From assembly GCA_027489295.1 (NCBI GenBank), contig JAIYAA010000321.1:1-40335 (forward strand): a stretch of 40,335 nt of DNA. Reading direction: 5' to 3'. Positions 15,459 through 25,038 of this stretch are shown here, one piece after another. The stretch comes from Sphingomonadales bacterium (lineage in GTDB: Bacteria > Pseudomonadota > Alphaproteobacteria > Sphingomonadales > Sphingomonadaceae). A program made the translations under genes and the position numbers. The first letter of the stretch is position 1. Each line of letters starts with the position of its first letter. The notes beneath the pieces were generated by a model, which was not told the origin of the DNA, searched no databases, and was given only the letters and a program-made list of their open reading frames with translations.

Positions 15459-16220
15459 CTAGAATCCGATCGACGCCGAGACGGTGACCGCCTGACGGCT
15501 GCGCGCGCGGTTGCCGTAATAATCCTTGCCCGGCAGCCCGCCACTCCAGGCGAGCCGGGCATCGATTTTGCCGATCTGCCGCGCCACGCCGAGGCTGTAG
15601 TCGAACTGGGTGCCGGTCATCCCGCCCCAGCGGCGTTGCCGCACTACCGTCATCAGTCCGGCATGGCCGAGCAGGCGCCAGCCGGAAAGCGGACGCACCA
15701 CGCCGTCGAGCGTGCCGTACACGGTGTGGACGCCGCTTCGCAGATAGTCCGGCGAGTAGAGCACCCGCGCCGCAAGGCTTCGCCCGCTGGCGCCGACATA
15801 TAGTTCGGTATAGCCCGATCCGCTGGCTCCCGAACCTGCCCCGCGAAACTCGCGCCGGGTCAGCCCCAGGTCCAGCACCAGGCCATTGTTCAGCCGTCGC
15901 GCATAGCCGGCGTCGATGCCGTACGAGACCAGGTCGGGCCCGCCCCGCAGCGCCGCGACCGTCGCCGCGCCGTCGAGATAGGCACCCGACCGATCGTCAT
16001 AGCCCAGCGACAGCGTCGCCGCCGGCCGCCCGGCACTCAGGCTGCGGCCGCGCCAACGCTCGTCGCTGGTGACGGCGACCTCGCCATTCCATTGCGCGCG
16101 CGCGCGATCGGCGATGCCGGTGCCAGCCAGCGCAACGACGATCGCGGCGGCGGCGCGAACGTCAGGGGCCCTCGGCGTCTGCCGGACATGGACTCTTCCC
16201 CACCACGGTCGCACAGGCAT
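15459..16220 (-). CDS. Outer-membrane protein, Gcw_chp/TIGR02001-like
   Basis: The 253-residue product starts at ATG 16220, which lies inside the protease gene (59-base overlap). This start is supported by GGGGGGAG a few bases upstream and by a signal-like segment (AAAAIVVALAGTGIA) ending in ARAQW. The mature part begins GEVAVTSDERWRGRSLSAG, close to the conserved opening of the Gcw_chp family (normally xVxxTSDYRFRGxSxS), and continues as alternating beta strands ending in VTVSASIGF with a C-terminal Phe, as expected of an outer-membrane barrel. Function is unknown. It is the last gene of the sigma / anti-sigma / protease operon, so it may be a structural or reporter component at the cell surface. 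Confidence 0.75.
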   Translation of the reverse strand: MPVRPWWGRVHVRQTPRAPDVRAAAAIVVALAGTGIADRARAQWNGEVAVTSDERWRGRSLSAGRPAATLSLGYDDRSGAYLDGAATVAALRGGPDLVSYGIDAGYARRLNNGLVLDLGLTRREFRGAGSGASGSGYTELYVGASGRSLAARVLYSPDYLRSGVHTVYGTLDGVVRPLSGWRLLGHAGLMTVVRQRRWGGMTGTQFDYSLGVARQIGKIDARLAWSGGLPGKDYYGNRARSRQAVTVSASIGF

Positions 16221-17349
16221 CGATCTCCCCCCCGCCCGGCCTGGCGGATACCGGCAACATGCGTCTGCCCCCTCTGGCATCGCGCTCGCGGCGCAGTGCC
16301 AGCAGGCCGCTGACTTCGGCTGCAGCGTAGGACGAACCGTTCGCCAGATACCAGCGCCCGCCCGGCTGGGTGGTGGGAATATCGCGGCCGGGTGCGATAA
16401 AAGCCGTGCCCGCCCGCGCCTCCGCCACCGCGACGACGCCCGGCATCGAAGCGGGGAAGCCGCCGCCCGCCAGCTTGGGGTCCACCGCCGCCACCACGGT
16501 GGCACCGCGATCGAGGCCCAGCCGGAGCAGCGTTTCCAGCAGCCGGCTGGGTGGTCCGCTGAGGCTGAGGTTGATCACGTCTGCCCGCTGCTCCACCGCG
16601 AAGCTCACCGCGCGGGCGAGGCTGAGGCTGTCGCACAAGGTGGCTGCGCCCGAACCGGTGCCCTCCTGCCGACAGGCGCGGAGGGCGAGCAGGGTGGCGG
16701 CCGGTGCGACGCCGACGATGCCCATGCCATTGTTCGCCCGCGCCGCGATCACCCCGGCGATGCCGGTTCCGTGGTTCTCGGCGGGTGCGGGGGCGGTGCC
16801 GATAAAATCGCGCGCCAGGCGAACCTGCCCGGCCAGATCCGGATGCTGCGCGTCGACCTTGCTGTCGATCACCGCGACGCGGGCGCCGCGCCCGGTAGCC
16901 ATGCGGTGCAGGGCGGTGAGGTGCCACGCCCGCACCGTCGGCTGCGCGGGGTAGAGCGGATCATTGGGGTGCGGCTGGCCTTGCGCCTGGAAGGTGGCGA
17001 TCGGCTCGGACCATTCGACCGCCGTGTCGCGGGCGACCTGCGCGGCGACTTCCTCGGCGGTGCGACCCTCGGGCACGGCCATGATGAAGCAATCGATCCC
17101 GATCATCGGCATCGGCCAGTTGCCGGTGAGCTGCAGGCCGTTCCGTTTTGCCACCGCGGCCGCGATCCGCCGCCGGCCCGCCGCCGATCCGTCCTCGCCA
17201 TAGCCGCCGCCATAGCCGCTCCCGGCACGGAAGTGCGGGGGTGCGAGGCGCAGCATCACCAGGATGCGCGGGCCGTTCGCTTCGCCGGCCGTGGCGGGGG
17301 CGGCGATCAGCGCGGCGACCGCCAGCAGCAGGGCCGCCAGCAGCTTCAT
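16162..17349 (-). CDS. Subtilisin-like serine protease (S8), exported
   Basis: The 395-residue protein has a signal peptide (MKLLAALLLAVAALIAAPATAG), then a prodomain-like region (about 28-120, RILVML...GIDCFIMAVPEG...AVEWSEPIATF), then the S8 catalytic core. The triad is visible: Asp162 in VAVIDSKVD, His193 in ENHGTGIAGV, Ser340 in NGSSYAAAEVSG. The segment that normally carries the oxyanion-hole Asn (AAAGN) reads VVAAVDPKL, so that Asn appears replaced, perhaps by Asp290. ATG 17349 overlaps the anti-sigma stop as ATGA. It probably acts in the periplasm or at the surface. Position in the operon suggests it modulates the anti-sigma factor, whose C-terminus resembles this protease's own prodomain. 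Confidence 0.88.
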   Translation of the reverse strand: MKLLAALLLAVAALIAAPATAGEANGPRILVMLRLAPPHFRAGSGYGGGYGEDGSAAGRRRIAAAVAKRNGLQLTGNWPMPMIGIDCFIMAVPEGRTAEEVAAQVARDTAVEWSEPIATFQAQGQPHPNDPLYPAQPTVRAWHLTALHRMATGRGARVAVIDSKVDAQHPDLAGQVRLARDFIGTAPAPAENHGTGIAGVIAARANNGMGIVGVAPAATLLALRACRQEGTGSGAATLCDSLSLARAVSFAVEQRADVINLSLSGPPSRLLETLLRLGLDRGATVVAAVDPKLAGGGFPASMPGVVAVAEARAGTAFIAPGRDIPTTQPGGRWYLANGSSYAAAEVSGLLALRRERDARGGRRMLPVSARPGGGEIDACATVVGKSPCPADAEGP

Positions 17350-17972
17350 GGCGCGGGGTCGACCGGTTGGACCATCGCCACCCCGGGGGCGGCCTGCAGT
17401 CGCGCGATCGCGGCGCGGCGCTGCTCGGGCGCGATGGCGAGCAAATAGGCACCCGCCGCCGTCGGTCCGTCGACCAGCCGGGCCTGCGACGCCGCGATCG
17501 CCTTACGCAGCGCAGCCTCGCGGGTATCGGGGGCAAACATCACCAGGATGTTGCCGGTCGGGTGGGCGTCGGGCGATCCCAGCGCATGATAGGTCCCGGC
17601 GCTCGGTGCGGCGGCCTGGCGATATTGGAGCACGACGCCGATGCCGAGCAGCAGCAGCGCCGCCTGCGCGCCCAGCATCCACCCGGCGCGAACCGCGAAG
17701 CGGCGCGGCAGGCGCTGTGGTGGCGGAGGTGCAGCAAGATCGGCGGCCAACCGCTCCCAGCCGCCGGGCGCGGCCGCCGGCAGATCCGCGACGGCGGTGC
17801 GCAGGCGGCGCTCGGCTGCCAGCTCGGCACGGCATTCGTCGCATTGGGGGAGATGCGCCTCGACGAGCAGCCGGTCGCCCGGCTCGATCGCGCCGCTGAC
17901 ATACCAGGGCAGCAGCAGCATCGTCGCTTCGTGCGGATCGCCGCGCAAATGGTGGAGTTCGCCCATCGTCAT
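17346..17972 (-). CDS. Transmembrane anti-sigma factor with subtilase-prodomain-like C-terminus
   Basis: This 208-residue protein has an N-terminal zinc-binding anti-sigma domain (His40, Cys44, Cys47 in HLPQCDEC), one membrane helix at about 98-117, and a periplasmic C-terminal domain at about 141-206. That last part reads NILVMFAPDTREAALRKAIA...AYLLAIAPEQRRAAIARL...VAMVQPV. It can be laid beside residues 29-117 of the downstream protease (ILVM, IAA-A, FIMAVPEG, VEWSEPI), the usual fold of an inhibitor-I9/fervidolysin-type prodomain. ATG 17972 overlaps the sigma gene's stop (ATGA), and its own stop overlaps the protease start (ATGA), so expression is stoichiometrically linked. It would hold the ECF sigma factor inactive at the membrane until signalled. 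The prodomain resemblance is by eye. Confidence 0.8.
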   Translation of the reverse strand: MTMGELHHLRGDPHEATMLLLPWYVSGAIEPGDRLLVEAHLPQCDECRAELAAERRLRTAVADLPAAAPGGWERLAADLAAPPPPQRLPRRFAVRAGWMLGAQAALLLLGIGVVLQYRQAAAPSAGTYHALGSPDAHPTGNILVMFAPDTREAALRKAIAASQARLVDGPTAAGAYLLAIAPEQRRAAIARLQAAPGVAMVQPVDPAP

Positions 17973-18556
17973 ATCCAGTCCGCCAGTTCGCCCGCCATCG
18001 CCCGGCGGAGATGGCGCCGCGCGTGGAACATGCGTGTCTTTACCGTATCCACCGGGCACCCCAGAATCTCCGCGATCTCGCGATAGCCGATCTCGTGAAA
18101 ATAGGTGAGGTCCACGACTGCCCGATGCTCCGCCGACAGGCCCGCCATCGCCAGGCGCAACGCCCGGTGGGTGCGGTCCTGCGACAGCGCTGCATCGGGG
18201 GTTTCGGCATCCACCAGTGCGGCGGTCGCCGTATCGTCCACCGGCGCTTCGTCGCGGGTGCGGGCCCGCACCGCCTTGCGATAGGCAATGGCGAACAGCC
18301 AGGTCGAAAGCCGGCTGGCGCCGGTGAAGTCGCCGGCCTTCTGCCACAGCACCATCAGCGTGTCGTTGACCACCTCTTCGACCAGCGGCGGCCGGCGCAC
18401 CAGCGTGCCGACAAAGCGGGCAAGGCGGGGCTGGTAGCGCCGATAGAGCTGCTCGAACGCGCGCAGATCGCGCGCGCGCACGGCGACGACGAGGCCCATC
18501 TCCTCCTCGTCGGCAGACATTGGCGGGGGGCCGCCCTGTTGGTCGATCCGCGTCAC
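17969..18556 (-). CDS. ECF RNA polymerase sigma factor
   Basis: The 195-residue protein has sigma region 2 (AFEQLYRRYQPRLARFVGTL, DTLMVLWQKA, STWLFAIAYRKA, about 33-97) and region 4 (LSAEHRAVVDLTYFHEIGY, VDTVKTRMFHARRHLRRAM, about 138-188), with no region 3, as in ECF factors. The start is GTG 18556, supported by AAGGGAG 4-10 bases upstream. It is first in an operon with anti-sigma, protease and OMP genes. A promoter-like motif (TTGAACCTTCC, 10 bases, CGCCACT) lies just upstream at 18579-18606 and recurs before the PEP-CTERM gene, which suggests autoregulation plus control of that gene. Confidence 0.9.
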   Translation of the reverse strand: MTRIDQQGGPPPMSADEEEMGLVVAVRARDLRAFEQLYRRYQPRLARFVGTLVRRPPLVEEVVNDTLMVLWQKAGDFTGASRLSTWLFAIAYRKAVRARTRDEAPVDDTATAALVDAETPDAALSQDRTHRALRLAMAGLSAEHRAVVDLTYFHEIGYREIAEILGCPVDTVKTRMFHARRHLRRAMAGELADWI

Positions 18557-18578
18557 GCGCTCCCTTCGTTTGCAGCGT

Positions 18579-18606
18579 AGTGGCGTGCAGACGGGGGAAG
18601 GTTCAA
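18579..18606 (-). promoter_or_regulatory. Candidate ECF-type promoter of the sigma operon
   Basis: On the minus strand TTGAACCTTCC (18596-18606) is followed after 10 bases by CGCCACT (18579-18585), 22 bases before the sigma GTG. The same two blocks with the same 10-base spacer occur at 19441-19468. GAACC-type -35 elements with a short GC-containing -10 are usual for ECF sigma factors, so the adjacent sigma factor is the likely reader. Confidence 0.6.
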
Positions 18607-18670: not shown

Positions 18671-19321
18671 TCAGCCGAGCGCCAGCGCGGTCCGGACGCG
18701 GCGGCGGCGATAGCGCAGCGTGCCGCCGGCGAGGCCGGCACCCACCATCAGCATGCCCCAGGTCGCCGGCTCGGGCACAGCGGCGGAAAGCGTGGCGTTC
18801 TCGGGCGCGAAATCGCTGATCGCGGCGTTGCCGGCGCCGGCGCGCGGCCACAGGTTGAAGCCGTAGCGACCCGGTGCGAATCCCGTGCTCGGCAGCAGCG
18901 ACAGCGGCACCTTGACGGTAAGGATGTTGCCGGCAATCGCCACCCAGTTCGGGTCGAGCGCGGTGCCGCCGATCGAGCCGGTGCCGTTTTTCTGCACGAC
19001 GATCGCCTGGTCGAAGATCACGTTGCCCTGGCCGATGCCGCCGAACGGACGGATCGCACCCTTGCCGGTGTTCACGCCGTACACATAGAAGCCGGCGGTG
19101 CCGGGGGTGATCGCACCCGCAAAGGTGGCGCCGAGGGTGAACAGCTTGGCGGAGGCATCATAGCTCACCGAAAAGCTGGTGACGTCGAGGTCGGCGAGCT
19201 TGGGGCCGGTATAACCCGAAAGGAAATCGCCCGTGGCATCGGTAACGCTCTGGGTCTGGGCCAGCGCGGGGGCGGTGCAAGCGAGGCAGGCAAGCGCCGC
19301 AGCGCCGAGGAACATACGCAT
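18671..19321 (-). CDS. PEP-CTERM sorted surface/secreted protein
   Basis: The 216-residue protein begins at ATG 19321 (GGGAGAA upstream) with a signal peptide (MRMFLGAAALACLACTAPALAQ). It has a beta-rich, Gly/Thr-rich body and ends with the PEP-CTERM tripartite signal: the motif VPEPATWGMLMV near 182, a hydrophobic helix (GAGLAGGTL), and a basic cluster RYRRRR. Such proteins are processed by an exosortase and placed at or released from the surface, often alongside exopolysaccharide. No exosortase gene lies in this window. A candidate ECF promoter and a structured leader lie upstream, tying it to the sigma factor encoded just downstream. Confidence 0.88.
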   Translation of the reverse strand: MRMFLGAAALACLACTAPALAQTQSVTDATGDFLSGYTGPKLADLDVTSFSVSYDASAKLFTLGATFAGAITPGTAGFYVYGVNTGKGAIRPFGGIGQGNVIFDQAIVVQKNGTGSIGGTALDPNWVAIAGNILTVKVPLSLLPSTGFAPGRYGFNLWPRAGAGNAAISDFAPENATLSAAVPEPATWGMLMVGAGLAGGTLRYRRRRVRTALALG

Positions 19322-19340
19322 GTTTTGATTCTCCCGTGAT

Positions 19341-19431
19341 TGGCCCGGCCCGATGCGGGGGAGCACCGGGCCAGGCACGCACGGCAGATGCTCGCCCAAG
19401 AACAGGGGATAGCCCGAGCACCGATCTGCCG
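19341..19431 (-). other. Structured 5' leader of PEP-CTERM gene
   Basis: The stretch between the candidate promoter and the ATG can form two stems: TGGCCCGG (19341-19348) with CCGGGCCA (19366-19373), and CGGCAGAT-GCTCG (19382-19394) with CGAGC and ATCTGCCG (ending 19431). The second would sit at the very 5' end of the RNA. It may stabilise the message or regulate translation. I see no match to a known riboswitch. Confidence 0.45.
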
Positions 19432-19440
19432 CACTCCGTC

Positions 19441-19468
19441 AGTGGCGCGGGCGTCGCGGAAGGTTCAA
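19441..19468 (-). promoter_or_regulatory. Candidate ECF-type promoter of PEP-CTERM gene
   Basis: TTGAACCTTCC (19458-19468) and CGCCACT (19441-19447) are separated by 10 bases, exactly as in the copy upstream of the ECF sigma gene. The element is oriented towards the PEP-CTERM gene, leaving a leader of roughly 110-115 bases. An A/T-rich patch (AAAAATTT) lies upstream of the motif in both copies. Confidence 0.6.
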
Positions 19469-19496: not shown

Positions 19497-20987
19497 TCAG
19501 GCGGCGGCCGGGACCTTGGCCGCCGCATAGCGCGCGATGAAGGCGCCGTGGCCCGGCAGCTTGGCCAGCTGCGCGGCGATGCCGACCCGCAGATCGGCCA
19601 GCGCCCGCTCCAGATCGGCACTGGGGATCTGCGCCGGCATCGGGTGATGGTCGCGCGGGCGAACTCCCTGCCCCAGCATCACCGCGTTCCAGCTGTCGAC
19701 ACGGAACAGGTCGGTGCCTTCCTGATAGGCCGCCGCGCCTTCCTCGAACAGCGCGATCCGCGCCGCGAGGCTGTCCGGCACCGTACGCGCGGCATGGTCG
19801 CGCCAGAAGGGCTCGGGCCGGTCGTTGAGCTTGTAGTGAAGGATGATGAAGTCGCGGATATGCTCCGCCTCGGTACGCGACTGGGCGTTGAACCGGGCAG
19901 AGAAGGTCGCCATGTCGCTGTGCGACGGAAAGTTCTGGAGCAGCCGCGTCACCGCGATCATCACCAGGTGGATGCTGGTGGATTCGAGCGGTTCGATGAA
20001 GCCGCTCGCCAGCCCCAGCGCCACGCAGTTTCGATTCCATGCCTGCTTGCGCATGCCGGTGGTGAAGCGGATCAGCCGCGGATCGAACAGCGCGCGCCCG
20101 GGCACCGCCGCGAGCAGCTGGTCGCGGGCTTCGTCGTCGGACAGATAGTCGCTAGCATAGACGAATCCGTTGCCCATGCGATGCTGCAGCGGAATCCGCC
20201 AGCGCCAGCCGGCGCCGTGCGCGATGGCGCGGGTATAGGGCACCGGCCCCTCGGTGGTCTCCGACTGGACGGCGAAGGCGCGGTTGGTGGGCAGCCAATG
20301 GCTCCAGTCGTCGAAGCCGGTCTTGAGCGTCTCCTCGATCAGCAGCGCGCGAAAGCCGGTGCAGTCGATGAACAGGTCGCCCTCGATGCGCAGGCCGCCT
20401 TCCAGCACCAGCGCGTCGATATCGCCATTCGCAGTCTGCACCACCTCGGTGATGCGGCCCTCAACCCGGCGCACGCCGGCGGCCTCTGCCAGACCACGCA
20501 GGAAGGCCGCATAGGCGGTCGCGTCGAGATGATAGGCATAAGCGAGCGGCATCGGATCGCCGGTGGCGAACTTCTCCGACAGCGCCGCCTGCGTCTCGAG
20601 CGAATAGTCCCCCAGCGCGCCGCCGAAGCCGCGCGCCTGCGCCTCCAGCCAGAAATGCTGGAAGTCGCACAGGGGCAGCCCCCGGCCGATCGATCCGAAC
20701 GGGTGGAAATAGCGGTCGCCGTCGCGCTGCCAGTTCTCGAACGAGATGCCGAGCTTGAAGGTGGCGTTGGTCTCACGGAGGAAGACCTGCTCGTTGATGC
20801 CGAGCAGCTTGTGGAAGGTCCAGGCGGTGGGGATCGTCGATTCCCCCACGCCCACCGTGCCGATCGCATCGGATTCGACGAGCGTGATGTCGAGGTTCGG
20901 CCCCAGATGCCGCACCAGCGCGGCCGCCGCGACCCAGCCCGCCGTGCCGCCGCCGGCGATCACTACCCGAAACTTTTGCTCGCCCAT
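19497..20987 (-). CDS. Flavin-dependent (tryptophan-type) halogenase, second copy
   Basis: The 496-residue protein has GGGTAGW (12-18), GVGESTIP (46-53), catalytic Lys78 in ATFKLGI, WRWRIP at 261-266 (the WxWxIP motif), and Glu335-Ser336 in IEPLEST. It is therefore a complete flavin-dependent halogenase. It is clearly a relative of the copy at 1192-2697 but diverged in the N-terminal half and C-terminus. It follows SapC by 33 bases and completes a TBDR-SapC-halogenase set that recurs in TBDR-rich proteobacteria. The substrate is unknown; the indole-brominating relatives that have been studied show activity on free indoles. It could also be a distinct oxidase-like member. A start at ATG 20987 fits, with GGGGAGGAAG upstream. 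Confidence 0.9.
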   Translation of the reverse strand: MGEQKFRVVIAGGGTAGWVAAAALVRHLGPNLDITLVESDAIGTVGVGESTIPTAWTFHKLLGINEQVFLRETNATFKLGISFENWQRDGDRYFHPFGSIGRGLPLCDFQHFWLEAQARGFGGALGDYSLETQAALSEKFATGDPMPLAYAYHLDATAYAAFLRGLAEAAGVRRVEGRITEVVQTANGDIDALVLEGGLRIEGDLFIDCTGFRALLIEETLKTGFDDWSHWLPTNRAFAVQSETTEGPVPYTRAIAHGAGWRWRIPLQHRMGNGFVYASDYLSDDEARDQLLAAVPGRALFDPRLIRFTTGMRKQAWNRNCVALGLASGFIEPLESTSIHLVMIAVTRLLQNFPSHSDMATFSARFNAQSRTEAEHIRDFIILHYKLNDRPEPFWRDHAARTVPDSLAARIALFEEGAAAYQEGTDLFRVDSWNAVMLGQGVRPRDHHPMPAQIPSADLERALADLRVGIAAQLAKLPGHGAFIARYAAAKVPAAA

Positions 20988-21793: not shown

Positions 21794-24700
21794 TCAGAAG
21801 CGGAAGCGCGCGCCGACCAGATACCGGGCCGAGCCTTCGGACTCGTACCAGGTGTTGATGTAATCGCGGCTGTAGCTGCGAACGCCCTCCTCAAGGAGGT
21901 TGATGCCTTCGAAGCTGAGCGCGATGTTCTTGGTCAGGTCATAGTTGATGCTGACATCGACCTGGCCGTACGGATCGTTGAACGCCGGGTTGTGCGCAGC
22001 ACCGCGGTTGACGTCGCTCAGGAACTTGCCGCGCCAGTTGTACGAAAGGCGCGCCGAGATGCCGTGCTTGTCATAGATCAGCGTGGCGTTTGCGGTGTCG
22101 CTCAGGCCGACCAGCGCGAACTGGTTGGCCGTCGGATCGGCGGTGATGTCGAAGCCGATGTTGCCGCGCACCAGCGTATAGCTCGCGGCGATACCGAAGC
22201 CGGTATTGCCGAGGAAATACTGGCCGGCGAGCTCGACGCCGTAGATTTCGGCGTCCTTGTTGTTGATCGGCGTGTTCACCGCGAAGTTGAGCAGCGGGTC
22301 GGCAGAGGTCGGCTGCACGTCGATCGCCGCGAGCGTGTTGCTGATATAGGTCGAACCGAAGGTCCGGGTCGCGGGCACATAGTTCGCCTGCAGCTCCTGC
22401 GTCGCCTGGGCGACGTTGCCGCCGTACTTCTGCAGGATCGCCGCGCTGGTGAACAGGTTGACGTTGCTGATATCACCGCCGAGGCCGGTGACGATGTTGC
22501 GTGCACTCGTCGCCAGCGGGCCCGCGGTCGGGTCGCGCAGGCCGAACAGGTTGCGCTGCACCACCGTGTTGCCGATGAAGTTATGCACCCGCTTGTCGAA
22601 GAAACCGACCGACAGATACACGTCGCGACGCGGATACCATTCGAGCGAAACGTCGAAGTTATCCGAATCCAGCGGCTTCAGCGCCGGATTGTTCTGGTTG
22701 CCGGTCGCAACGCCACCCAGCGAGGTGGGGTTGTTGAGCGCACCCGCGCCGGTCGAGGCGAACAGGTTGCCGTACGGCGCGCGCGAGATCGTCTTGCTGT
22801 ACGAGACGCGGCCGATCAGGTTCTTCGCGGCCTCGATCTGGAAATCGACCTGCGGCAGCAGATTGTCGTAGCTGCCACGGCCGCTCACCGCCTGCTGATC
22901 CTTCGAGTTCAGCACCGAGAAGTCGTTGTCGGCTTCCCACACGATCGCCAGCGGCACCGTCTGGTACGACACCGACTTCACCTTGGTGTGCTCGTAGCGC
23001 ACGCCGGCGACCAGCGTCGCGTTGCGGCCGCCCAGTTCGCCCTTCCAGGTGAGCTGGCCATAGGCCGCCCAGATGTCTTCCTTCACCCGGTTGTCGTTGT
23101 TGGCATCGATGATGTTCTGGTGATTGATGCCGTCGTTGGTAATGCCGACATAGTGGTTGTACAGCGCGTTGTAGAGCTTGGTCGCGTCCTCGGCGCGCCA
23201 GGCCACCTTGCCCACCGCGTCGGCGGTCGCGTTGTTGTGGTGGAACTGGCAGACCAGGCAATATTGCTGGACGGTGCCCGGCGCGAAGGCCGCGACGTCC
23301 GGCGGCAGCGCGTTGTTCCAGTCACCCAGAACCTGGCGAGTGTTGTACTGGGTCTGGCGCGTATCGGTGCTGCGCCAGTCGCCGCCGAAGTCGAAGCGGC
23401 TGCCGCCGCCCAGATCCCAGCCCGCGTCGATGCGGCCTTCCTTGATCTTCTGCGTCTGCGTCGATGCGAACTGGCGCTGCACCGCCGCCGACAGATCGCC
23501 TGCATCGAAGACGCCGTTGCAGTTGCCGTTGGTGAAGGCGACACCCTTCGGGGTGGTCTGCTTGTAGCAGTCGTTGATCGTCAGCGTCTGGGTCGGGAAG
23601 CCATCATTATCCCAGGTCAGCCCGTGCGAGGTCACGATGTTGCCGTTGAAGGCGACCGTGGTCGAGGTCTGGCCGTTGGGATTGTCGGGCAGGCTCTCCG
23701 CCTTGCCGAAATGGCCGTCGATCTTGAGCGTGAAGTTGTCGGCCAGCTCCCACTTCAGGTTGCCGCCGATATCCCACAGCCGGTTCTTCTGCGCGCGATA
23801 GGCGTTCTCGAAGCCTTCGTCCTTCACGCCCGGCAGGGTCTCGTGAAGATACTTGGTCGTCGCGATGCCGTTGCTCGAATCGTCGAAGGTCACTTCGTCG
23901 AACGGCTTGGAGAACCAGTTGGACTGCGACGAGCGGCGTTCGGACGACCGCAGCTGTGCGAACAGACCGTCCACCGTGAAGGTCATGCTGTCCGACGGGC
24001 GATATTGCAGCACCGCCTGGCCGTTAATGCGTTCACGGCTCGCCTCCGAGAAGTGGTGGCGATAGTCGTCGGGCACTGCGACCAGCGTGTTCGGATCGGT
24101 CGGGCGGTTGTTGATCTTGGTGTTGGCGGTGATGTAGCCCTTTGAGGGATCTAGGAAATCCGACAGGCGGGGCATGTTCCAGTAATTGTTCGCCTGGCTC
24201 GGGAAGCTGAAGTTGCGCTTCTGGTAGCTGCCGAACACGCTGACGCCGAAGCGCTGCTCCGCGTCGCTCCAGCTGGCGATGCCCGAGAATTCCGGAGTCA
24301 CGTGGCTGCCGCAGCTGATGCAGTCGTCGGCCGAAGTGTCATAGCTGGCCTTGGCGCCAACCGAACCGGAGAAGCCGGCCGGGCGATCGAGCGGACGCGT
24401 GCCGACGATGTTGATGGTGGCACCGATGCCGCCCGACGGAATGGCGGCGCGGCCGGTCTTGTAGACCTCGAGCGTCTTCACGCCTTCCGAGGCGAGGTTG
24501 GCGAAGTCAAACGAACGGCCGAAGCCGCCGGCGCCGTCACCACCCTGGTCGCCGCCCACCGCGACGATGTTCGAGGCCGCGAGCTGGCGGCCGTTCAGCG
24601 TCACCATGTTGTACTGGGCGCCGAAGCCGCGGACCGTCACGGTCGAGCCTTCGCCGTTGACGCGATCTATCGACACGCCGGTGATGCGCTGGAGCGATTC

Positions 24701-24970
24701 CGCAAGGTTGGTGTTGGCGAACTTGCCGATGTCCTCGGCCGAGATCGCGTCGACGATGCCGGTCGAATCGCGCTTCAGCGCGATCGAACGCTCGAGCGAG
24801 GCGCGAATGCCGGTGACGATGATCTCGCCGCCATCCTGCGGCGCATCCTGCGCGGCTGGCGAATCGGTGGCGCCGCTGGTCTGCGCCGCGGCGATGCCGG
24901 GTACGGCAAGCGCCGTCGCGACAGCGAACATGGAAACCGCGCGAAGGCGCGCGGCGTTGGTCATACGCAT
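21794..24970 (-). CDS. TonB-dependent receptor, oligosaccharide-type
   Basis: The 1058-residue receptor starts at ATG 24970, with GGAGGGGAG about ten bases upstream. A signal peptide is visible (about 1-29, ending PGIAAAQ). A TonB-box-like GEIIVTGIRASLERSI follows, then the plug with DAISAEDIGKFANTNLAESL, RITGVSIDR and TVRGFGAQYNMVTLNGR, a pattern of the Caulobacter/Xanthomonas-type TBDRs. The barrel ends with YLVGARFRF. Extracellular-loop cysteines occur in pairs (DDCISC, YCLVC, and two further Cys). The neighbours (GH3, FHS permease, LacI) point to a beta-linked or other oligosaccharide rather than iron. An alternative start is the Met two codons later. Confidence 0.9.
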   Translation of the reverse strand: MRMTNAARLRAVSMFAVATALAVPGIAAAQTSGATDSPAAQDAPQDGGEIIVTGIRASLERSIALKRDSTGIVDAISAEDIGKFANTNLAESLQRITGVSIDRVNGEGSTVTVRGFGAQYNMVTLNGRQLAASNIVAVGGDQGGDGAGGFGRSFDFANLASEGVKTLEVYKTGRAAIPSGGIGATINIVGTRPLDRPAGFSGSVGAKASYDTSADDCISCGSHVTPEFSGIASWSDAEQRFGVSVFGSYQKRNFSFPSQANNYWNMPRLSDFLDPSKGYITANTKINNRPTDPNTLVAVPDDYRHHFSEASRERINGQAVLQYRPSDSMTFTVDGLFAQLRSSERRSSQSNWFSKPFDEVTFDDSSNGIATTKYLHETLPGVKDEGFENAYRAQKNRLWDIGGNLKWELADNFTLKIDGHFGKAESLPDNPNGQTSTTVAFNGNIVTSHGLTWDNDGFPTQTLTINDCYKQTTPKGVAFTNGNCNGVFDAGDLSAAVQRQFASTQTQKIKEGRIDAGWDLGGGSRFDFGGDWRSTDTRQTQYNTRQVLGDWNNALPPDVAAFAPGTVQQYCLVCQFHHNNATADAVGKVAWRAEDATKLYNALYNHYVGITNDGINHQNIIDANNDNRVKEDIWAAYGQLTWKGELGGRNATLVAGVRYEHTKVKSVSYQTVPLAIVWEADNDFSVLNSKDQQAVSGRGSYDNLLPQVDFQIEAAKNLIGRVSYSKTISRAPYGNLFASTGAGALNNPTSLGGVATGNQNNPALKPLDSDNFDVSLEWYPRRDVYLSVGFFDKRVHNFIGNTVVQRNLFGLRDPTAGPLATSARNIVTGLGGDISNVNLFTSAAILQKYGGNVAQATQELQANYVPATRTFGSTYISNTLAAIDVQPTSADPLLNFAVNTPINNKDAEIYGVELAGQYFLGNTGFGIAASYTLVRGNIGFDITADPTANQFALVGLSDTANATLIYDKHGISARLSYNWRGKFLSDVNRGAAHNPAFNDPYGQVDVSINYDLTKNIALSFEGINLLEEGVRSYSRDYINTWYESEGSARYLVGARFRF

Positions 24971-25038
24971 TGGGTTTTCTCCCCTCCTGAACCGGCCCTT
25001 AGGCCCGAATTTTCCGCTGAGTACCGGCAAGCGCCGGC

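What the first reader, a model, noticed from the sequence alone, without database searches (positions are those of the whole stretch)
15459..18556. Anti-sigma factor with a subtilase-prodomain-like sensor, encoded with its own subtilase
Seen: four genes overlap end to end (ECF sigma, zinc-type anti-sigma, S8 protease, outer-membrane protein). The anti-sigma's periplasmic C-terminus (residues about 141-206) can be aligned by eye with the protease's prodomain (about 29-117): ILVM at the start, an IAA-x-A helix, FIMAVPEG/YLLAIAPEQ, then VEWSEPI/VAMVQPV. Known: S8 prodomains bind and inhibit their protease and are then cleaved. Inference: the protease binds the anti-sigma's prodomain-like domain, so free or trapped protease would set the state of the anti-sigma and release the ECF factor. 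I know of no described system of exactly this design.
Basis: partly seen in the sequence, partly recalled or inferred. Interest (0 to 1): 0.75.

Follow-up and report, generated by a model that had tools for sequence, protein, structure and literature searches.

The report
Anti-sigma factor carrying a protease prodomain
Many bacteria encode, beside a secreted subtilisin-type protease, a membrane switch protein whose outer end looks like that protease's own removable cap, which suggests that the cell reads the amount of uncapped protease to control a small set of genes.

Summary
The C-terminal domain (CTD, about residues 139-208) of the window's zf-HC2 anti-sigma matches Pfam's fervidolysin-type S8 prodomain above cut-off. 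Its predicted fold is best matched by subtilisin propeptides, and it aligns in register with the neighbouring protease's prodomain. In a genome survey the anti-sigma profile also hit a true S8 prodomain.

Of 39 loci found through the anti-sigma alone, 38 hold an S8 gene; the other is cut by its contig end. In further alpha- and gammaproteobacterial surveys, 19 of 22 CTD anti-sigmas have an S8 gene within 1.5 kb, against 1 of 32 CTD-less hits. Three CTD anti-sigmas lack one.

A conserved promoter-like motif precedes sigma; in the window it recurs only before the upstream PEP-CTERM gene. The aligned S8s keep the triad where sequence reaches, and their own prodomain. The window's clade lost the oxyanion Asn, and its CTDs end near where a cleaved propeptide ends.

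Best reading: a tethered prodomain-like docking site for mature S8 that couples protease availability to sigma release. Docking, cleavage and sign are inferred. The searched library shows no such system.

The parts
17969..18556 (-). ECF sigma factor (195 aa; GTG start, or the ATG at about 18521)
   Evidence: Pfam Sigma70_r2 and r4_2; TIGR02937 sigma70-ECF
17346..17972 (-). Membrane anti-sigma factor, 208 aa: zf-HC2 domain, TM helix within about 90-120, periplasmic CTD 139-208
   Evidence: Pfam, AlphaFold2 model, alignment of 119 sequences, window included
17349..17558 (-). CTD: S8-prodomain-like (PF22148) domain of the anti-sigma, residues 139-208, strands 141-146, 165-168, 175-179, 198-204
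16162..17349 (-). Exported S8 subtilase, 395 aa: signal peptide (by eye), own I9-like prodomain about 27-117, catalytic domain with D162/H193/S340, no Asn at the AAAGN (oxyanion) site
   Evidence: PF00082; family alignments; AlphaFold2 model pTM 0.85; Foldseek best hit pro-subtilisin E 3whi
15459..16223 (-). TorF/Gcw_chp family putative porin, fourth gene of the operon (start uncertain)
   Evidence: PF09694, TIGR02001; found in 36 of 39 related loci
18577..18606 (-). Promoter-like motif TTGAACC-N17-CACTAC upstream of the sigma gene (inferred autoregulation)
   Evidence: TGAACC at this place in 35 of 38 type-A loci (window included) against 165 of 5942 background windows
18671..19399 (-). PEP-CTERM protein gene directly upstream, inferred regulon member
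   Evidence: Tail VPEPATW...RYRRRR (the PEP-CTERM label is recalled, no family search was run on it); same promoter motif in window and L001-L006
19439..19468 (-). Second copy of the motif, TTGAACC-N17-CACTGA, upstream of the PEP-CTERM gene
   Evidence: the only two TGAACC-N16to18-CACT matches in the window, both strands

Best explanation
This is an ECF sigma/anti-sigma switch whose periplasmic sensor is a tethered copy of a subtilase prodomain. Shown: the anti-sigma has a cytoplasmic-type zf-HC2 domain, a TM segment and a C-terminal domain homologous to S8 prodomains; an S8 protease with its own prodomain is nearly always encoded beside it, usually in the same operon; the sigma gene carries a conserved promoter-like motif that in the window clade also precedes a PEP-CTERM gene. 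Inferred: after the S8 sheds its own prodomain, the CTD docks on the vacated prodomain-binding face, so the anti-sigma reads the amount of mature, uncapped protease in the periplasm. Docking then changes anti-sigma stability and so releases the ECF factor, which switches on sigma, anti-sigma, protease, porin and (in the window clade) the PEP-CTERM protein. Direction, if docking is right: S8 acting on the anti-sigma as its dedicated site-1 protease (sigma ON), about 0.5; docking protecting the anti-sigma as a feedback brake, about 0.35; other, about 0.15. In the window's clade the protease lacks the oxyanion Asn and the CTD tail is about as long as a cleaved propeptide's, so there a stable inhibited complex is likelier than fast cleavage.
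Against: Three CTD anti-sigmas have no S8 beside them: G842 and G959:C54 none within 8 kb, G1062:C20 none in the 12 kb read. G842 has no PF00082 match in the held genome, although its sigma gene keeps the promoter motif. Ferredoxin-like folds are common: the VIA lead over unrelated rows is under 1 Z unit (8.6 against 8.0), and Foldseek E-values are weak (best 9e-3, a dehydrogenase; propeptides 0.04-0.12). Precomputed Pfam tables list PF22148 for only 7 of the 120 relatives shown, and only 7 of 24 distant CTD anti-sigmas match it at E<=1. Some S8-ECF pairs have an anti-sigma with no such domain by eye (L089, L092, L095), so the S8-ECF link does not need the CTD. Tail length and Asn loss change together in one clade only, a single event. 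No binding or cleavage data exist.
Confidence: 0.68

Rival explanations
1. Homeostat: the docked S8 shields the anti-sigma, and loss of free S8 (diverted to substrates) exposes it to another site-1 protease. The circuit then restores the protease level, as a titration-type negative feedback.
For: The S8 lies in the sigma's own, apparently autoregulated operon. In the window clade the CTD tail is long enough to enter the cleft of a protease without the oxyanion Asn. An operon-borne periplasmic protease as a brake has the MucD precedent (recalled).
Against: In members whose S8 keeps Asn the CTD mostly ends 1-3 residues after the strand-4 position (20 of 23), which would leave the active site open. 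No site-1 protease was looked for.
Confidence: 0.25
2. The CTD is mainly a membrane-tethered inhibitor or folding helper of the S8; the anti-sigma anchors the protease, and sigma control uses another signal.
For: Stand-alone propeptide-like inhibitors exist (POIA1, 1v5i and 1itp). Type-A tails end 5-7 residues after the strand-4 Pro in 116 of 119 sequences, close to the end of a cleaved propeptide.
Against: The 72 different S8 rows read besides the window keep their own prodomain, so a second one is not needed for folding. Short-tailed CTDs should inhibit poorly.
Confidence: 0.15
3. The CTD is a ferredoxin-like domain (prodomain-derived or not) that does not bind the S8; the genes stay together for another reason, for instance the S8 as a regulon product.
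For: CTD kept without a neighbouring S8 in 3 of 22; S8-ECF pairs without CTD; weak fold-search margins.
Against: CTD-bearing and CTD-less anti-sigmas differ sharply in S8 adjacency (19 of 22 against 1 of 32). In the window protein PF22148 is the only Pfam family matching the CTD above its cut-off, and the profile reaches a true S8 prodomain.
Confidence: 0.15

Closest known systems
Membrane anti-sigma factors controlled by regulated proteolysis (RseA with DegS and RseP; passages seen in PMC8103513)
   Same: Membrane anti-sigma with a cytoplasmic sigma-binding part and a periplasmic part that is the expected site of control
   Different: Sensor is an S8-prodomain homologue, and the candidate protease is an S8 encoded beside it rather than an HtrA-type enzyme; proteolysis not shown
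Subtilase prodomains and stand-alone prodomain-like inhibitors (PF22148 / I9 fold; 1spb, 1scj, POIA1 1v5i)
   Same: Same predicted fold and sequence family; in the window clade the tail ends within about two residues of a cleaved propeptide
   Different: Sits at the C-terminus of a membrane anti-sigma, and carries a GP hairpin signature (GPxxxGxY-like) not seen in the partner prodomains printed
ECF54 sigma factors with subtilase in their neighbourhood (PMC8999054, passages seen)
   Same: Subtilase gene near an ECF sigma gene
   Different: [quoted passage not shown] here a membrane anti-sigma carries the prodomain-like domain
algU-mucABCD (recalled, not read)
   Same: Sigma operon that also encodes a periplasmic serine protease
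   Different: MucD is HtrA-type; no prodomain-like anti-sigma sensor is known to me there

Membership tests
S8 prodomain family (PF22148 Fervidolysin_NPro-like / I9 fold) | Match to the curated profile above its cut-off | tested here: met
   22.2 bits against 21 for the window CTD; at E<=1 in 30 of 36 family members and 7 of 24 distant members; listed in precomputed tables for 7 of 120 relatives
S8 prodomain family (PF22148 Fervidolysin_NPro-like / I9 fold) | beta-alpha-beta-beta-alpha-beta fold like subtilisin propeptides | tested here: met
   other ferredoxin-like folds score within 1 Z
S8 prodomain family (PF22148 Fervidolysin_NPro-like / I9 fold) | Lies directly N-terminal to an S8 catalytic domain in the same chain | tested here: not met
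   Lies at the C-terminus of a separate anti-sigma protein
S8 prodomain family (PF22148 Fervidolysin_NPro-like / I9 fold) | Binds and inhibits its protease, with the tail in the active site | not testable with these tools
   Only tail length measured: 5-7 residues after the strand-4 Pro in 116 of 119 type-A sequences; 1-3 in 20 of 23 members whose partner keeps Asn
zf-HC2 (class I) membrane anti-sigma factor | zf-HC2 domain with conserved H..C..C, TM segment, adjacent ECF sigma gene | tested here: met
   PF13490 at E<=1 in 36 of 36; H40, C44, C47 invariant in 119; helix 90-120 over a hydrophobic stretch; sigma adjacent in 38 of 39 loci
zf-HC2 (class I) membrane anti-sigma factor | Binds and inhibits the adjacent sigma factor | not testable with these tools
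   No binding data
Active S8 subtilase | Asp/His/Ser triad | tested here: met
   D162 and H193 in 73 of 73 different S8 rows, S340 in 63 of 73 with 10 gaps
Active S8 subtilase | Oxyanion-hole Asn (AAAGN) | tested here: not met
   Absent in the window and its clade; an Asp (D290) at or next to the site is invariant in 38 type-A proteases; present in most other partner S8s
ECF54-type subtilase-linked sigma (PMC8999054) | No anti-sigma factor | tested here: not met
   Anti-sigma present and adjacent
Anti-sigma factors controlled by regulated proteolysis | Site-1 then site-2 cleavage releases sigma | not testable with these tools
   No cleavage data; site proteases not searched

The most novel reading that the evidence does not exclude
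A general, so far undescribed class of ECF signalling in Pseudomonadota: the ligand of the anti-sigma factor is a mature subtilase, recognised through a tethered prodomain mimic that competes with the protease's own prodomain. The cell thus measures uncapped protease in the periplasm. In one clade the pair evolved into an attenuated protease held by a full-length propeptide-like tail.
Probability: 0.5. Interest if true: 0.85.

Novelty: new variant of a known kind. Interest (0 to 1): 0.72.

Why it matters
What membrane anti-sigma factors sense is, to my knowledge, unknown for most ECF systems. Here the sensor's fold names a candidate ligand, the neighbouring protease, so the signal becomes directly testable with two purified proteins and a reporter. 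It would also be a case of a protease's removable prodomain reused as a signalling receptor, seen in alpha-, beta- and gammaproteobacteria and paired with S8 in most loci examined.

Tried and rejected
Chance resemblance: rejected by PF22148 above cut-off, profile scores against 200 shuffles twice, a reversed profile and 11 catalytic-domain windows. Fold search alone as proof: rejected, because ACT and other ferredoxin-like domains score nearly as high; the whole anti-sigma model has pTM only 0.37. CTD as the only prodomain, supplied in trans: rejected, since the partner S8s keep their own. A filter could have hidden S8s without one; one search showed that it dropped only loci on my list of repeats (plus L073, whose S8 is cut short), all of whose matches also reach the prodomain part. 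Coevolution of CTD tail and oxyanion Asn as independent support: rejected, because the S8 tree (72 rows) needs one change of that label (support 100/98). Large regulon: not supported. TTGAACC-N17-CACT gave 8 matches in 6 genomes against 5 for the backward control. TTGAACC-N17-CACTRA gave 8 in 12 genomes against 1: six at a sigma operon or its upstream gene, one upstream of the S8-less copy in G959, one (G892:C16) not followed up. The strict pattern misses the sigma promoter of several of these genomes, so other targets are not excluded.

Counting rules of the surveys: a hit counts as CTD-covering if it reaches profile position 185; the centre genome G001, the seeds (L138, L139, L141, L098) and three loci at contig ends (L135, L131, L136) are left out. 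L131's next gene holds a prodomain-like stretch by eye. The 32 CTD-less controls are the N-terminal-only hits that came with loci (16 per survey, L111-L112, L114-L127, L151-L166), not all such hits, and some loci are short; other N-terminal-only hits were not examined. L120 is the one control with S8; its C-terminus looks prodomain-like by eye. Without the truncated L117 it is 1 of 31 (p 2.4e-10). Only some candidates per genome were scored, and the alpha list was cut at weak E-values. G764, an S8 with a prodomain, is not counted. A type-C-like hit (L071/L097, G502) was dropped because it did not match the A4 profile.

Literature: and 94 of the held open-access library; only the listed rows were looked at (for example 12 of 463, 20 of 55). 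Most subscription journals, and the main ECF reclassification paper by its DOI, are not held. Passages only were seen of PMC8999054, PMC7406223 (a reference-list passage) and PMC8103513.
Full report
OBSERVATION. The window holds, on the minus strand, ECF sigma (17969-18556), anti-sigma (17346-17972), S8 protease (16162-17349) and a TorF/Gcw_chp porin-like gene (15459 to about 16223). The anti-sigma has a zf-HC2 domain and, at residues 137-203, a match to PF22148 (fervidolysin N-terminal prodomain; E 1.8e-4, 22.2 bits, cut-off 21). No whole genome is held for the window.

SYNTENY. A scan of genome contigs with the anti-sigma's conserved VDGPT stretch gave 39 loci, among them Sphingomonadales, Caulobacterales, Rhodanobacteraceae and Oxalobacteraceae. 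Sigma is adjacent in 38 of 39, S8 present in 38 of 39, porin in 36 of 39. The missing sigma (L038) and the missing S8 (L035) are at contig ends. In L016 (Sphingomonas quercus) the matched anti-sigma copy is not itself followed by S8; a second CTD anti-sigma with S8 lies about 3 kb upstream. So S8 directly follows the matched copy in 37 of 39.

SURVEY WITH CONTROL. Distant relatives from an order survey showed further anti-sigma types, some without zinc cysteines, with a prodomain-like CTD and an S8 nearby (L062-L065); three more came from a search with an S8 (L090, L093, L094). A profile of 25 anti-sigmas (A4) was run on 229 gamma- and 337 alphaproteobacterial genomes. Excluding seeds, the centre genome and loci cut by contig ends, S8 lies within 1.5 kb of 10 of 11 alpha and 9 of 11 gamma CTD-covering hits. 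For N-terminal-only hits with loci it is 1 of 32, and that one (L120) has a prodomain-like C-terminus by eye (Fisher p 1.5e-10). The exceptions are G842 and the second copy in G959, next to carAB-like genes (by eye), and an orphan in G1062:C20 with neither sigma nor S8 matched in 12 kb. No PF00082 match was found in G842.

THE PROTEASES. The window protease is modelled as a pro-subtilisin (pTM 0.85, best PDB match pro-subtilisin E 3whi, E 6.8e-23). Of 73 different aligned S8 rows (68 beside a CTD anti-sigma, 5 beside another kind), D162 and H193 are kept in 73 and S340 in 63, the other 10 being gaps. Each of the 72 besides the window has at least 64 residues aligned to the prodomain (earlier counts with repeats). 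The window clade and three gamma relatives (L106, L130, L132) lack the AAAGN oxyanion Asn; 38 type-A proteases have an invariant Asp at or next to that site. On the S8 tree this is one change (support 100/98). CTDs paired with Asn-less proteases end 4-16 residues after the strand-4 Pro position, 5-7 in 38 of 43 different loci. CTDs paired with Asn-keeping proteases end 1-3 residues after it in 20 of 23, the others 7, 9 and 9 (one search prints 44 because L106 and L134 are one gene). By VIA alignment the window CTD's last residue meets residue 75 of the 77-residue propeptide.

REGULATION. TGAACC occurs 10-160 bases upstream of sigma in 35 of 38 type-A loci, the window included (L017 too short, L038 without sigma; misses L026, L029, L039), against 165 of 5942 background windows. 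The element reads TTGAACC-N17-CACTAA in many Sphingomonadales, with a variant -10 half elsewhere. In the window exactly two such elements exist, before sigma (18605) and before the PEP-CTERM gene (19467). The same pair is seen in L001-L006. Strict genome searches find little else. This supports, but does not prove, autoregulation and a small regulon.

MECHANISM. Shown: homology, neighbourhood conservation, intact triad, own prodomain in the S8, promoter-like motif. Inferred: after the S8 loses its prodomain, the CTD occupies the same face, so the anti-sigma reads mature uncapped protease. Whether this leads to cleavage of the anti-sigma (sigma on) or to its protection (feedback brake) is open. 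I lean to the first for short-tailed members and see the second as nearly as likely in the window's clade.

NOVELTY. ECF sigma with a membrane anti-sigma is a known kind. A prodomain-homologous sensor paired with an S8 did not appear in the rows listed by nine searches of the held library. The nearest printed statement seen is ECF54 with subtilases nearby but no anti-sigma (PMC8999054, passages).

Fetching two hits that had been left out added one case against (G1062:C20) and one strong case for homology (G764); controls were recounted from 31 to 32.

Noticed in passing
window 18671-19399 (-), motif 19439-19468: PEP-CTERM-type protein gene upstream of sigma with the same promoter motif; also in L001-L006. 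It may be the main output or a substrate of the system.
   Followed up: partly
L089, L091, L092, L095, L096: S8 genes beside a different ECF sigma; in L089, L092 and L095 the neighbouring anti-sigma's periplasmic part is not prodomain-like by eye: a second kind of S8-ECF pairing.
   Followed up: partly
L064, L065: CTD-bearing anti-sigma-like protein overlapping an S8 with a hydrophobic C-terminal anchor, but no adjacent sigma gene matched.
   Followed up: partly
L069 5003-8950 (Sphingomonas quercus genome, same locus as L016): Rearranged operon with two CTD anti-sigmas, one before S8-porin-sigma and one after sigma.
   Followed up: partly
L128, L129: CTD anti-sigma and sigma with the promoter motif but no S8, next to carAB-like genes (by eye).
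   Followed up: partly
L183 4908-5672 (+), G1062: Orphan CTD anti-sigma with no sigma and no S8 matched in 12 kb; the same genome has another copy (L147) beside an S8.
   Followed up: partly
L062, L063, L148: Sigma and anti-sigma genes are convergent, and the nearby S8 has a lipobox-like N-terminus.
   Followed up: no
window 19497-20987 (-) and 21794-25030 (-): Look like a flavin-dependent tryptophan halogenase and a TonB-dependent receptor (recognised by eye from recall, not searched).
   Followed up: no
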